Assembly: GCA_020161845.1 (NCBI GenBank)
Contig: JAIUNK010000002.1
Coordinates: forward strand, 186,001 to 250,000
Reading direction: 5' to 3'
DNA length: 64,000 nt
From: Actinomycetota bacterium
Lineage (GTDB): Bacteria; Actinomycetota; Actinomycetes; Actinomycetales; Dermatophilaceae
The notes beneath the pieces are model-generated. The model made no database searches. It was not told where the DNA came from and was given only the letters and a program-made list of their open reading frames with translations. Below, in pieces: positions 18,669 to 22,947 of this stretch. Position 1 is the stretch's first letter; each line of letters starts with the position of its first letter. The translations under genes were made by a program, and so were the position numbers.

Positions 18669-18691
18669 GAACCGCAATTCCCTTCTCCGTC
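18669..18691 (+). promoter_or_regulatory. Possible ECF-type promoter of the sigma/CHAT module
   Basis: GAAC at 18669-18672 is followed after 15 bases by CGTC at 18688-18691. Many ECF sigma factors use AAC at -35 and CGTC at -10 with 15-17 bases between, often at their own promoter. It lies about 95 bases before the first gene of the module. This is a short match and could be chance. Confidence 0.35.
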
Positions 18692-18785
18692 GGGCTTTTT
18701 CGCGTCAGCATGTATCACCGCGACGAGTCGCTGCTCTCACCGGTGTCGCACTGTCGTCCCGTCCACTGCGAGAAAGGCCCACGCC

Positions 18786-18971
18786 ATGTCCGCGACCCCC
18801 GGCAAGCGCTCCGACACCCCCGACCTGGACGAATCCGGCGAACCCGCCGCGGCGACGCCCAACCCCGCAGCAGCCACGCCGCCCTCCGGCGAGCAGCCGA
18901 CCCCGCGCCGGCCCAAGGGCCCCGGGACCGGCACCGAGTCGGTCTGGGTGCCCATGACCGAGGAGGTGTGA
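18786..18971 (+). CDS. 61-residue Pro/Ala-rich small protein heading the sigma/CHAT module
   Basis: ATG 18786 is preceded by GAGAAAGG and its TGA overlaps the sigma-factor ATG (TGATG), so it is the first cistron of the operon. The sequence is low-complexity (SGEPAAATPNPAAATPPSGE), then a basic PRRPKG stretch, then a better-defined end, GTGTESVWVPMTEEV. It has no membrane segment or signal peptide. I recognise no family. It may be a regulatory peptide, or even a protease substrate given the CHAT gene downstream; that is inference. Coding is supported by the ribosome binding site and the exact overlap. Confidence 0.6.
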   Translation: MSATPGKRSDTPDLDESGEPAAATPNPAAATPPSGEQPTPRRPKGPGTGTESVWVPMTEEV

Positions 18972-19573
18972 TGGCGGGACCGGCCACCGTACCCCTGGCC
19001 GCCCGCGCGGGCGCCGCGCTGAGCGAGGCACGCGCGGGCGACGGGGCCCGGATGGCCGAGCTGGTTCAGATGCTCACGCCCATGCTCTGGCACATCGCCA
19101 GGGCAGCCGGCATCGATCATCAGAGCGCCGAGGACGCGGTCCAGCACACCTGGCTCAAGCTGCTGGAACACCTCGACGATCTGGACCGACCCGAGGCCGT
19201 GGTCGGCTGGCTGGCGACGACGGTACGCCGGGAATCCTGGCGGGTCTCCAGCGCGGCGCGGCGTACCCTCGTCAGCGACGAAACGGCGGAGTTCGAGGAC
19301 CCGCGGGCGGCGCTGGCCCGGTGCGCGCCACCGGACCCCGGCGAGGGGTTGCTGACCTGCGAACGGGACGACGCGCTGTGGCGGCACGTCCGCGCACTCA
19401 GCCCCCGCTGTCAGGCCCTGCTCCGGGCGGTCTGCCTGGCCGAACGACCCGACTATGCCGCGATCGGGGCCGCCCTCGGCATGCCGATCGGATCCATCGG
19501 CCCGACCCGCGGCCGCTGCCTGGCCACCCTGCGAGCCGCCTTGCTCGCCGACCCCTCCTGGAGCGAGCGATGA
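18971..19573 (+). CDS. Sigma-70-family (ECF-like) RNA polymerase sigma factor
   Basis: This 200-residue protein has the two ECF core regions. Region 2 (residues about 25-95) shows MLWHIARAAGI, SAEDAVQHTWLKLLEHL and GWLATTVRRESWR. Region 4 (about 140-190) shows LSPRCQALLRAVC, DYAAIGAALGMPIGSIGPTRGRCLATLR. It would direct polymerase to specific promoters. The ATG at 18971 is preceded by AGGAGGT and overlaps the stop of the 61-residue ORF. Its TGA overlaps the next gene (ATGA), which encodes an anti-sigma-like protein. Such sigma factors next to CHAT-protein genes recur in Actinobacteria, to my knowledge. Confidence 0.9.
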   Translation: MAGPATVPLAARAGAALSEARAGDGARMAELVQMLTPMLWHIARAAGIDHQSAEDAVQHTWLKLLEHLDDLDRPEAVVGWLATTVRRESWRVSSAARRTLVSDETAEFEDPRAALARCAPPDPGEGLLTCERDDALWRHVRALSPRCQALLRAVCLAERPDYAAIGAALGMPIGSIGPTRGRCLATLRAALLADPSWSER

Positions 19574-20067
19574 GCGAGGACTTCGGCATCGTGGACGAGC
19601 TGGCCGACCTCGACGAGTTCGATGAGGAGATCCTGCGTGCCGTGCGGGACGTCGCGCAGCGCCGCGACCCGATGCCGGCCGGGATGGTCGAGCGCATCCA
19701 GTTCGAGATGACGCTGGCCGCCCTGCGCGCCGAGATCGCCGAACTGCAGGCGGGCACCCCGGCGGAGATCCGGACCGGAGCGGCCGCGCTGACCGACACG
19801 GTGACCTTCCGGGGCACCGCGGTCAGCCTGATGGTGCGCACTCGCTCCGACCAGGGGGCCGGCACCGATCCGGCCACCGTCGACCTGGAGTGCTGGGTCA
19901 GCGAGGCTCATGCGCGGATCGAGCTGTGGGGTCCCGGCGGGCCGCGCTCCGGCGTGGCCGATCAGCACGGCCGCCTGGAGTTCCTGGCGGTCCGGCGGGG
20001 GCCGGTCCGGTTCGTCGTGCATCCCGTCCAGGGCGTCCCGGTCGCGACCCCGGCGGTCGAGCTGTGA
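19570..20067 (+). CDS. Anti-sigma-like / beta-sandwich protein between the sigma factor and the CHAT protease
   Basis: The 165-residue protein is soluble, with no membrane segment. Residues 1-60 are acidic and helical (DELADLDEFDEE, then a helix with MVERIQFEMTLAALRAEIAELQ), as in cytoplasmic anti-sigma or sigma-binding segments. The remainder looks like a small beta-sandwich ending GRLEFLAVRRGPVRFVV, resembling carboxypeptidase-regulatory-like domains. Its ATG overlaps the sigma-factor stop (ATGA), as is usual for anti-sigma genes. It lacks the zinc-binding HxxxCxxC motif. I infer that it binds the sigma factor and could be cut by the CHAT protease; neither is shown by the sequence. Confidence 0.7.
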   Translation: MSEDFGIVDELADLDEFDEEILRAVRDVAQRRDPMPAGMVERIQFEMTLAALRAEIAELQAGTPAEIRTGAAALTDTVTFRGTAVSLMVRTRSDQGAGTDPATVDLECWVSEAHARIELWGPGGPRSGVADQHGRLEFLAVRRGPVRFVVHPVQGVPVATPAVEL

Positions 20068-20107
20068 ACCCGGCGGCGCCCGACCCGGGGCGACGCTGAG
20101 GTCCGCC

Positions 20108-22855
20108 GTGGCCGCAGGGACCGTGGCCGAGGTCACCGAGCTGCTGGAGAGCGCCCGCGCGGCATTCGCCCAGTACCGCATCGACGAGGGCGCGGCCCGC
20201 CTGGCCACGACGTACGACGCCCTGCGCGCCACCCCCGATCCCCCACCCGAGCTGCCGCTGCGGATCCGGCTCACGGCGAGCTGGCTCACCTTCGACCGGC
20301 AGGGTCTGGCCGCCGCCGATCGGGAGCTGCTCGCGTTGCGCACCGACGCGACCGCGGCGCACCTGCCCGGCGTGGTCGCGGCCTGTGACGTGCAACGGGC
20401 CCTGCTGCTGGCGCGGTGCGGCGACGTGACCGCGGCGTTGGTGGCGATGCGGGCGGCCGAGGAGAACCGGCACGCCCTCGGCGCCGCCGAACAGGTGCGG
20501 CTGCTGGTCAACCGAGGCACGTTGGCCTACCACGCGTTGGCGCTCGACGACGGCATCGCGGACCTACGGGCGGCGGCGGACGCCTCGGTCGGCGACGGGA
20601 TGGCCGCCCTGCGGTTCAGCGCACTGCACAACCTCGGCTGCGCCGAGTTCGTCCGGGGTGACCTGCCGGCCGCGTTGTGCCTGCTCGACGAGGCGGCCAG
20701 CCTCGATGTGGCGATGAACCGGGGGGTCAGTCACCTCGACCGGGCCCGAGTGCTGGTCGAGGCCGGCCTGGTCCGCGACGCCGCCCGGGCCCTGCGGGAC
20801 GCCTCGGCCGCCTTCGCCGAGAGCGGGCACAGCCGTGAGGTCGCCGAGATCGAGGTCGACCTCGCCCGCTGCGAACTGTTGCTCGGCGATGCGACCGGCG
20901 CGGCCGCGCGGGCGGGCCGGGTGGCGGCGACGTTCCGAGATCGTGGCGAGCCGTATTGGGCGGATCGGGCCGCGCTGATCGAACTCGCCGCCGGGCGGCT
21001 GGCCGCCCCGGCAGCCGAGGCGACCGGGGGCCGCCAGGTCTCGGAGCGGATCGGGCGGGCCGAGCGACTGCTCGCCGCCGCGACCACCCGTCGAGATCTG
21101 GCCACGGCCGGCCTGGCCCGGCTCGAATTCGCCGAGGCGCTGTGCGATCGCGGTCGTGCGCCGGACCTCGCGGCGGCCGCGCCGGTGCTGGACGCGGCGC
21201 GGGGCTTGTCCCGATCTCCGTACGTCGCCGCGCGGCTCGGCTACGCCCACGCCAGGACGCGTCTCGACCTCGCCGCGGGTCGGCCACGGTCGGCGACCGC
21301 CCGGCTGGCCCGGGCGGCCCAGGACCTCGCGGGAGCGCAACGACGCACCGCGGGGCTCGATGCCCGCAGCGCCTTGGCGGTGCACGCCCAGCGCCTGGCC
21401 GACCTCGACGTCGGGCTGGCGGTCCAGCGGCGCGACCCGGTGGCGGTGCTGTATCGCGTCGAGCGGTGGCGCCGGGCGGTCGCGCCGTTGACCCCGGTGC
21501 GGCCGTCCGCACACCCGGACGAGGCGCTGCTGCTGAGTCGGCTGCGTTATGCGCGGGAGGCCCTCGCGCAGGCGTCGCCGCCGCGGGCGGCCGACCTGCG
21601 CGCCGAGGTCCGCCGGCTGGAGCGGGCCACCTCGGCGTATCGCTGGCGCGCCCGCACGATCGCCCCCGGGCACGCCGTCGAGGAGCCCACCTATGCCCAC
21701 GTGCGGGACGCGGTGACCGTCGCCGGGCAGCGGGGCACGGCGGTGCTCGCCCTGGTCGTCATCGGCGGCCGGGTCTTCGCGGTCGTGGTCCCGCCCGCCG
21801 GGAGAGCGCAGCTGCTGGAGCTCGGCGAGGCGGCCGCGCTGCGCCTGGCGGCCCGTCGAGTGAGTCGCGACGCCGACGCGGCCGCGCGCGGCGAGACCGA
21901 CCCCCGCCTGGGGCCGTTGATCGCGGCCGCCGTGCGCGACTCCGTCGCCGTGCTGGACGAGTTGCTGCGCCCGGCACTGCGGCTGGTCGGCGCCGTCCCG
22001 GCCGTCGTCCTGGCGGGCGAGTTGTTCGGCGCCATCGCCTGGGGGCTGCTGCCCAGCCGGCGCGGCCTGCCCACCACCTTGGCCCCGTCCCTGCTCGCGT
22101 GGGCGGCGCTGGCCGGCGCCCGAGAGAGCGTGGCGCCGCGCCGACCGCCCGTCGAGGTGGTCCTGCCGGCCGGCGGGGACAGGCGGCTCGACCCGCCGGC
22201 CGACATGCTGGGGGGCGCCGCCGTGACCGTGCTGGCGCTGCAAGGTCCGGGCGTACCGCACGGCCCGGCCGAGGCGGCCGGGGTGCTGGCCGCCTGGGCC
22301 GCGGCCCGCGATCCGGCGGCCGATGACGCCACCTGCCGCGTCGCGCGGGTGGACGATCCCCCGGGGGGATCGTCTCGGGAGGCCCCCTGTGCCTCCCGAG
22401 ACGACCTGCTCTGCGCGCTGGCGAGCGCCGACGTCGTGCATGTCGCCGCCCATGGCGACCACCAGCCGGAAAGCCCCCTCTTCAGCTCCCTCCGGATGGC
22501 GGACGGCCTGGTGTTCGCCCACGAACTCGAACCGAACCCCCCGTCGGCCTCGCTCGTCGTCCTGTCGGCCTGCGAGGCCGGACGGGGCACCGCCCGGCCG
22601 GGCGAGGAGGCCCTGGGTTGGCCGTCGGCCCTGCTCGCCCTCGGCGTACGCACCGTCATCGCCCCGCTGGTGGCGGTGCGCGACGACGAGGCGTGCGCCG
22701 TCATGACTGACCTGCATCGACACCTGGCCGCAGGACTGCCCGCGGACGCGGCGCTGGCGGCGGCGGCCGGCCCGACGGGCACGCCGTTCGTGTGCTTCGG
22801 TGCGCCCTGGGCTGGTGTCGATCCACCCCTACAGAGCGCCGAGGCGCCCGCCTGA
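20108..22855 (+). CDS. TPR-CHAT domain caspase-like protease
   Basis: CHAT domains are clan CD cysteine peptidases related to caspases and separases. The 915-residue protein is mostly alpha-helical repeats (TPR-like) to about residue 480, then a linker region with YRWRART, then the CHAT domain (about 560-910). Its dyad is intact: His782 in VHVAAHGDH and Cys822 in LSACEAG, with VRTVIAPL further on. The start is GTG 20108, preceded by GAGG; upstream in-frame codons lie in the previous gene. It is the last gene of the sigma module. TPR-CHAT proteins act in other bacteria as effector proteases (for example Craspase, or with gasdermins). Here a regulatory target such as the neighbouring protein is plausible. 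A nested palindrome lies within the gene at 22352-22404. Confidence 0.88.
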   Translation: MAAGTVAEVTELLESARAAFAQYRIDEGAARLATTYDALRATPDPPPELPLRIRLTASWLTFDRQGLAAADRELLALRTDATAAHLPGVVAACDVQRALLLARCGDVTAALVAMRAAEENRHALGAAEQVRLLVNRGTLAYHALALDDGIADLRAAADASVGDGMAALRFSALHNLGCAEFVRGDLPAALCLLDEAASLDVAMNRGVSHLDRARVLVEAGLVRDAARALRDASAAFAESGHSREVAEIEVDLARCELLLGDATGAAARAGRVAATFRDRGEPYWADRAALIELAAGRLAAPAAEATGGRQVSERIGRAERLLAAATTRRDLATAGLARLEFAEALCDRGRAPDLAAAAPVLDAARGLSRSPYVAARLGYAHARTRLDLAAGRPRSATARLARAAQDLAGAQRRTAGLDARSALAVHAQRLADLDVGLAVQRRDPVAVLYRVERWRRAVAPLTPVRPSAHPDEALLLSRLRYAREALAQASPPRAADLRAEVRRLERATSAYRWRARTIAPGHAVEEPTYAHVRDAVTVAGQRGTAVLALVVIGGRVFAVVVPPAGRAQLLELGEAAALRLAARRVSRDADAAARGETDPRLGPLIAAAVRDSVAVLDELLRPALRLVGAVPAVVLAGELFGAIAWGLLPSRRGLPTTLAPSLLAWAALAGARESVAPRRPPVEVVLPAGGDRRLDPPADMLGGAAVTVLALQGPGVPHGPAEAAGVLAAWAAARDPAADDATCRVARVDDPPGGSSREAPCASRDDLLCALASADVVHVAAHGDHQPESPLFSSLRMADGLVFAHELEPNPPSASLVVLSACEAGRGTARPGEEALGWPSALLALGVRTVIAPLVAVRDDEACAVMTDLHRHLAAGLPADAALAAAAGPTGTPFVCFGAPWAGVDPPLQSAEAPA
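22352..22404. repeat. Two nested perfect palindromes inside the CHAT gene
   Basis: GACGATCCCCC is followed by GGGGGGATCGTC (22352-22374). From 22370 a second inverted repeat has 14-base arms, TCGTCTCGGGAGGC and its exact complement ending at 22404, round a 7-base loop. The two share ATCGTC. They encode a variable loop (DDPPGGSSREAPCASRDD) just before the catalytic His region. This looks like a palindromic element inserted in frame, not ordinary coding sequence. Confidence 0.75.
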
Positions 22856-22947
22856 TACCGGCGCGGGCCACTTTTTTCGGGCCGGCGTCGCGACGGCCCG
22901 GCGACGCGCCGACGCCGAGCCGTCGCCGCGCCGACGCAGCGCCCCGA

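What the first reader, a model, noticed from the sequence alone, without database searches (positions are those of the whole stretch)
18669..22855. Sigma-factor module with a CHAT protease: candidate proteolysis-controlled transcription switch
A 61-residue protein, an ECF-like sigma factor, an acidic anti-sigma-like beta-sandwich protein and a TPR-CHAT caspase-like protease with His782/Cys822 form one operon, with two exact overlaps and a GAAC-N15-CGTC box in front. Sigma factors with CHAT genes recur in Actinobacteria to my knowledge, but I know of no worked-out mechanism. A simple model is that a signal activates the protease, which cuts the anti-sigma-like protein and frees the sigma factor. 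It could be stress sensing or defence.
Basis: partly seen in the sequence, partly recalled or inferred. Interest (0 to 1): 0.72.

Follow-up and report, generated by a model that had tools for sequence, protein, structure and literature searches.

The report
CHAT protease beside a sigma factor
This is a bacterial gene switch in which a caspase-like protease is encoded next to a transcription (sigma) factor and its probable inhibitor; the same set recurs in related bacteria, and the genes suggest that the protease cuts the inhibitor to turn on a few other genes, some of them for further protein- or fat-cutting enzymes.

Summary
The four genes, the two overlaps and the His782/Cys822 pair are real. 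The GAAC-N15-CGTC box is not conserved. Another element, GTATCA-N16-CTCT at 18712-18737, is: GTATC-N17-CTC(C/T) lies upstream of 71 of 96 operons against 0.14 in shuffles. Its strict form is enriched only in genomes with the CHAT gene (60 sites, control 11; other genomes 11, control 20). Sigma, the 165-aa protein and CHAT keep this order in 73 of 80 named loci; 5 more are cut by contig ends. The set resembles group ECF54, for which proteolytic control without an anti-sigma factor was proposed (PMC8999054). Most likely the 165-aa protein is the overlooked anti-sigma factor: Arg68, invariant in 102 of 102, sits in a linker predicted disordered, a candidate cleavage site. The CHAT protein resembles Craspase TPR-CHAT and separase. 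Of 80 named relatives 57 carry a subtilase, usually with hypervariable tandem repeats (70 of 81 proteins); no such subtilase was found in the window's genome. It works like CASP-sigma without Cas7-11. Binding and cleavage are inferred, not shown.

The parts
18669..18691 (+).
18712..18737 (+). Conserved promoter-like element, here GTATCA-N16-CTCT, probably read by the sigma factor itself
18786..18971 (+). 61-aa acidic small protein, stop overlapping the sigma start; stands where most relatives have a subtilase; a 53-aa ORF stands there in another Austwickia
18971..19573 (+). ECF-type sigma factor (sigma2 and sigma4), 200 aa
19570..20067 (+). 165-aa protein (P165): N-terminal helices, disordered linker, Ig-like beta-sandwich; proposed anti-sigma factor
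19771..19773 (+). Codon of invariant Arg68 in the P165 linker; proposed place at which CHAT cuts
20108..22855 (+). TPR-CHAT caspase/separase-like protease, 915 aa
22451..22453 (+). Catalytic His782 codon
   Evidence: kept in 41 of 41 sequences, window included
22571..22573 (+). Catalytic Cys822 codon
   Evidence: kept in 41 of 41 sequences, window included

Best explanation
The operon is an ECF54-like, self-activating sigma switch. Inferred: newly made sigma factor is held by the translationally coupled 165-aa protein, whose N-terminal helices clamp sigma while the C-terminal beta-sandwich is the part presented to the protease. Inferred: an unknown signal sensed by the TPR domain re-arranges the His782/Cys822 site, as in Csx29. 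Inferred: CHAT then cuts the 165-aa protein in its disordered linker next to invariant Arg68, and sigma is released. Supported by comparative data: sigma reads its own operon and, in relatives, a small set of other genes from GTATCA-N16-CTCC-type promoters. Most relatives have a second, repeat-bearing protease gene (a subtilase in the operon, or in Cellulomonas a divergent trypsin-like protease); it was not found here, so in this genome CHAT would have to do the switching alone.
Against: No experiment and no complex model: single chains only. P165 has no known anti-sigma domain by Pfam or PDB sequence search; Foldseek gives no match at E 0.001, and the structural second look covered only its beta-sandwich. 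The separase Asp that binds a P1 Arg, already Lys670 in Craspase TPR-CHAT (PMC9729208), falls at window Cys863, Ala in the family consensus (my placing, just past the end of the local alignment), so Arg at P1 is not supported by that residue and Arg68 may instead contact sigma. Csx30 cleavage needs no single residue and lies in another loop than first expected. In four genomes (G008, G020, G036, G064) sigma-P165 and CHAT were found on different contigs. 18 of 36 CHAT-bearing genomes, the window's and G002's among them, have no strict promoter match; in the window's genome the relaxed form gives 6 hits against 16 control hits.
Confidence: 0.5

Rival explanations
1. The sigma factor has no anti-sigma factor; CHAT (with the subtilase elsewhere) degrades or processes sigma itself or acts on it directly, as proposed in print for ECF54. 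P165 is an accessory adaptor that presents substrates.
For: Stated for ECF54 in PMC8999054 (passage).
Against: P165 is as constant as sigma and coupled to it, the usual layout of a sigma/anti-sigma pair. The 'carboxypeptidase' in that description may be P165 itself: CarboxypepD_reg, a non-catalytic domain (recalled), matches 42 of 62 P165 members at E up to 0.1.
Confidence: 0.17
2. CHAT is an effector below sigma rather than the switch: sigma is released by a signal bound by the P165 beta-sandwich, and the operon then makes proteases (CHAT, subtilase, trypsin-like, M6) that kill or defend.
For: In relatives the motif also precedes an M6 protease, a patatin and a Zn-phospholipase C gene; subtilases carry repeats as if to be processed. 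A TPR-CHAT protease is said to activate a bacterial gasdermin in defence (PMC9729208, passage).
Against: CHAT stays although the other proteases come and go, though the loci were found through CHAT; Arg68 in the linker has no role in this reading.
Confidence: 0.22
3. Decayed remnant: with the subtilase lost, the window's operon is no longer functional.
For: No subtilase of this type found in the genome; only 2 of 4 genomes of the genus have CHAT; no strict promoter site.
Against: The ORFs are open and the catalytic residues, Arg68 and overlaps are kept; the operon lies behind pgi in both Austwickia genomes that have it; a form without subtilase recurs in Cellulomonas and Tessaracoccus.
Confidence: 0.08

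Closest known systems
Type III-E CASP: Csx29 (TPR-CHAT), Csx30 and CASP-sigma (PMC10028731, PMC9729208; passages read)
   [quoted passage not shown] separase-like fold; His-Cys dyad. The CHAT profile finds the Craspase TPR-CHAT 7x8a_D at 8.3e-8, but the Csx29 entries 7y9x/8eey only at 0.52.
   Different: No RAMP-family protein found in the genome, so no Cas7-11 sensor; the P165 profile finds no Csx30 entry; other promoter and neighbours.
ECF sigma group ECF54 (as described in PMC8999054 after Casas-Pastor 2021 and Huang 2015, neither held)
   Same: ECF factor with CHAT and, in relatives, subtilase and a CarboxypepD_reg-like protein beside it.
   Different: This locus lacks the subtilase. P165 as an anti-sigma factor, the promoter motif and Arg68 were in none of the passages read. 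Membership is not claimed.
Separase
   Different: The Arg-binding Asp appears not to be conserved.
DdvA, transmembrane anti-sigma factor (8rot_A)
   Different: There the fold is part of the anti-sigma factor itself and membrane-bound (entry title only).
[quoted passage not shown]
   Same: Caspase-type protease, ECF sigma factor and TPR protein in one neighbourhood; a transcriptional response is proposed.
   Different: Different caspase family and partner domains; EACC2 was not sought here.

Membership tests
ECF sigma factor | sigma2 and sigma4 regions, small size | tested here: met
   PF04542 1.2e-10; TIGR02937 residues 28-191, 49.3 bits against cut-off 42.9
ECF54 group | score against the group's own model | not testable with these tools
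   ECF Hub models and the founding papers are not held
ECF54 group | CHAT gene in the neighbourhood | tested here: met
   window 20108-22855; 73 of 80 named loci in the same order
ECF54 group | subtilase in the neighbourhood | tested here: not met
   not found in the window or, by this family's profile, in its genome; present in 57 of 80 named relatives. A neighbour gene, not part of the sigma protein
ECF54 group | carboxypeptidase-type domain in the neighbourhood | tested here: inconclusive
   P165 of the window has no Pfam hit; 42 of 62 alignment members hit CarboxypepD_reg, best 2.1e-7, E limit 0.1
CHAT protease (PF12770) | family match and His-Cys dyad | tested here: met
   80.8 bits against cut-off 24; H782, C822
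Type III-E CASP / Craspase | Cas7-11 (RAMP-fold) effector | tested here: not met
   PF03787 finds nothing in the genome; it rings in 4 of 14 control genomes. A Cas7-11 protein itself was not used as a query
Type III-E CASP / Craspase | Csx30-type sigma inhibitor | tested here: inconclusive
   profile of P165 lists 3 PDB sequences at E up to 5, no Csx30 among them
Soluble anti-sigma factor | binds and inhibits the cognate sigma factor | not testable with these tools
   no complex prediction or bench work possible
Soluble anti-sigma factor | translational coupling with the sigma gene | tested here: met
   4-nt overlap in the window and in 59 of 74 loci
Anti-phage defence system | match to a known system protein | tested here: not met
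   PADLOC: 0 hits for the four window proteins; P165: none in plasmids, one unannotated phage record

The most novel reading that the evidence does not exclude
A widespread actinobacterial counterpart of CASP that needs no CRISPR effector (absence of RAMP proteins tested in the window's genome only): a separase-like TPR-CHAT protease frees an ECF sigma factor by cutting a hitherto unrecognised anti-sigma family at an invariant linker arginine. The released sigma drives GTATCA-N16-CTCC promoters of a small arsenal (subtilase, trypsin-like and M6 proteases, phospholipases, HopA1/LanC/kinase enzymes). The hypervariable tandem repeats shared by unrelated proteases of this arsenal are bait or processing sites, and the small protein in subtilase-less operons is what is left of that bait.
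Probability: 0.25. Interest if true: 0.82.

Novelty: new variant of a known kind. Interest (0 to 1): 0.56.

Why it matters
If true, CASP, the one case met in these searches of a TPR-CHAT protease relieving inhibition of a sigma factor, would be a CRISPR-wired instance of a broader circuit: the CHAT gene is in 36 of the 78 genomes of the order sampled. It would give ECF54-like factors an anti-sigma factor, a cut site, a promoter and a regulon, testable in one reporter experiment, and it would tie hypervariable tandem-repeat proteases to a caspase-like trigger.

Tried and rejected
GAAC-N15-CGTC as the promoter: rejected, 9 of 96 against 11 of 96 on the reverse strand. Arg68 as a separase-type P1 Arg read by the separase S1 Asp: the Asp is not at the matching place, so only the invariance of Arg68 is claimed. 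Regulon in the window's own genome: 6 relaxed sites, 16 control sites; besides the operon's own promoter one overlaps the CHAT stop on the other strand, one lies inside a long gene, and three lie in or near the start of predicted genes and are unconvincing. Viral contigs: 11 stretches matched a peptide pattern, none encodes a relative of the CHAT protein. Foldseek search with the P165 model: no match at E 0.001. A relation between Ser/Thr in the repeats and a HopA1 or kinase gene in the locus is weak (7 of 8 against 25 of 58, p 0.025, no correction for phylogeny). Trypsin-like repeat protease: not found in the window's genome; two weak matches in G002. Likeness of the 61-aa protein to the 53-aa ORF of Austwickia TVS 96-490-7B or to the repeats rests on position and on VWV/YYVPM seen by eye; an iterated profile search of the 40 loci and the window found only itself. 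Rows dropped before counts: L072, L117, L133, L112, L136 (same genomes as other loci) from the promoter and Arg68 counts, L053 and L141 and loci without sigma or P165 or with under 200 nt upstream from the promoter count, L141, L071 and proteins of 130 aa or less from the Arg68 count. The repeat count of 70 of 81 subtilases still holds four duplicate genomes; without them it is 67 of 77.
Full report
What is there. Four ORFs run on the + strand: a 61-aa protein 18786-18971, an ECF sigma factor 18971-19573, a 165-aa protein (P165) 19570-20067 and a 915-aa TPR-CHAT protein from GTG 20108 to 22855. The first two overlaps are 1 and 4 nt; CHAT starts 40 nt after P165. Pfam sees Sigma70_r2 in the second and CHAT in the fourth and nothing in the other two; NCBIfam places the second in sigma70-ECF. 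The genome is 4.39 Mb in 82 contigs and has one match to Pfam's CHAT model. In both genomes the operon lies behind pgi.

Association. The CHAT protein has relatives in 36 of 78 genomes (own included), P165 in 39 of 78; 34 have both. Within the genus 2 of 4 genomes have CHAT. In 73 of these 80, sigma, P165 and CHAT follow in this order on one strand, in 9 of them with a subtilase between P165 and CHAT; 5 are cut by a contig end, L140 lacks sigma and P165, and L141 is rearranged. Of the 40 unnamed loci that hold CHAT, 6 show neither sigma nor P165 beside it (L053, L054, L058, L059, L061, L065; in L053 only a distant weak sigma match) and 2 show P165 only (L069, L071). Four of these genomes have sigma-P165 on another contig (G020, G036, G064, and in pieces G008). 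In six distant loci CHAT lies on the opposite strand from sigma and P165 (L062, L063, L066, L067, L068, L070). The catalytic His and Cys are kept in 41 of 41 sequences.

The usual partner that is missing here. In relatives a gene for a subtilisin-like S8 protease lies directly upstream of sigma or between P165 and CHAT; 57 of 80 named loci have it, and Asp, His and Ser of the triad are invariant in 22 of 22 aligned. It was not found in the window, and the family profile finds nothing in the whole genome, although Pfam's S8 model finds two other subtilases there. Of the 73 loci, 19 lack it: the Austwickia locus, Cellulomonas, Tessaracoccus MC1679, two MAGs (L124, L125) and L074, where sigma is too near the contig end to tell.

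Promoter. Counting two-block patterns in 96 upstream regions revealed GTATC-N17-CTC(C/T): 71 of 96, Markov mean 0.14, maximum 2 in 100 rounds; GTATC alone in 90 of 96 against a Markov mean of 16.8. It precedes whichever gene of the operon is first. On the reverse strand 48 of 96 regions carry it too (51 with a spacer of 16-18); in the 46 with both, the copies start 49-170 nt apart and face outwards, i.e. a divergent promoter. The strict form GTATCA-N16-CTCCT was then counted in 78 whole genomes. Summed by me from the table, the 36 genomes with a CHAT match hold 60 sites (in 18 of them) against 11 for the reversed control pattern; the other 42 hold 11 (in 9) against 20. The motif therefore goes with the module, as a promoter read by this sigma factor should. 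In the window it reads GTATCA-N16-CTCT at 18712-18737, 48 nt before the 61-aa start codon; the strict form has no match in the window's genome or in G002. Of 40 stretches fetched around further sites, 16 of 41 sites fall inside another ORF by a crude gene finder and some are surely chance. By Pfam the genes behind them include an M6 protease (L223; L239 looks alike), a patatin (L225) and a zinc phospholipase C (L210).

How it most likely works. As in CASP: Csx29 cuts Csx30, the inhibitor of CASP-sigma, when Cas7-11 binds target RNA (PMC10028731, passages). Here no RAMP protein was found, so the trigger must act on the TPR part by other means. Shown by comparison: the gene set, the intact active site, the invariant Arg68, the motif that goes with the module. 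Inferred: binding of P165 to sigma, cleavage, the signal, and the purpose.

Novelty. Of the papers listed by my searches (open-licence library only) I looked into those on Craspase/CASP, ECF54, caspase neighbourhoods with ECF factors (PMC8195603) and separase; none of the passages describes P165, the promoter motif or the repeat-bearing proteases. The two founding ECF papers are not held, so some of this may be described there. The mechanism is of a known kind; the form without Cas7-11, the proposed inhibitor family and cut site, and the repeat-bearing partner proteases make it a new variant.

Noticed in passing
S8 proteins of relatives, e.g. L036:3492-5168, L101, L116 region; not found in the window: 70 of 81 subtilases (67 of 77 without duplicate genomes) carry short, nearly exact tandem amino-acid repeats before the catalytic domain, mostly six residues, with a unit that differs between species (GYWGGI, GYASGV, PYYAGV, PYTQPH, NPVENS).
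   Followed up: partly
L094, L099, L102, L104, L106, L109, L113-L116, L127, L139: In 12 subtilase-less Cellulomonas loci the divergent gene encodes a protein with long (PFTE)n repeats; where Pfam was run (L116) it is a trypsin-like, Nal1-type protease. The promoter motif faces it in all of these but L114.
   Followed up: partly
L111, L124, L125 just upstream of sigma: Subtilase-less Tessaracoccus MC1679 and two relatives have a small ORF overlapping the sigma start with YYVPM/YYVPL units (one copy in L124), like the subtilase repeat PYYVSM of T. bendigoensis (L087); the window's 61-aa protein ends in ESVWVPMTEEV.
   Followed up: partly
L037, L052, L095, L097, L137 (HopA1); L095:3495-4721 (LanC); L085, L091-L093 (APH kinase): The divergent gene behind the motif is in some relatives a HopA1-domain protein or an APH-type kinase; in L095 the next gene is LanC-like. 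Recalled: these resemble class V lanthipeptide enzymes.
   Followed up: partly
L200, L229: Two small proteins behind GTATCA-N16-CTCCT sites in different genomes share the string LNPQPLPP.
   Followed up: no
L226: A gene downstream of a strict promoter site is a DUF6119 protein (8e-155).
   Followed up: no
MT838002.1:1750-2172: An unannotated 7.5-kb 'Bacteriophage sp.' record from human faeces encodes a P165 relative at 37% identity over 86% of it; it may be a mislabelled bacterial piece.
   Followed up: no
window 22833-22858, - strand: A second GTATCA-N16-CTCT match lies on the other strand across the CHAT stop codon.
   Followed up: no
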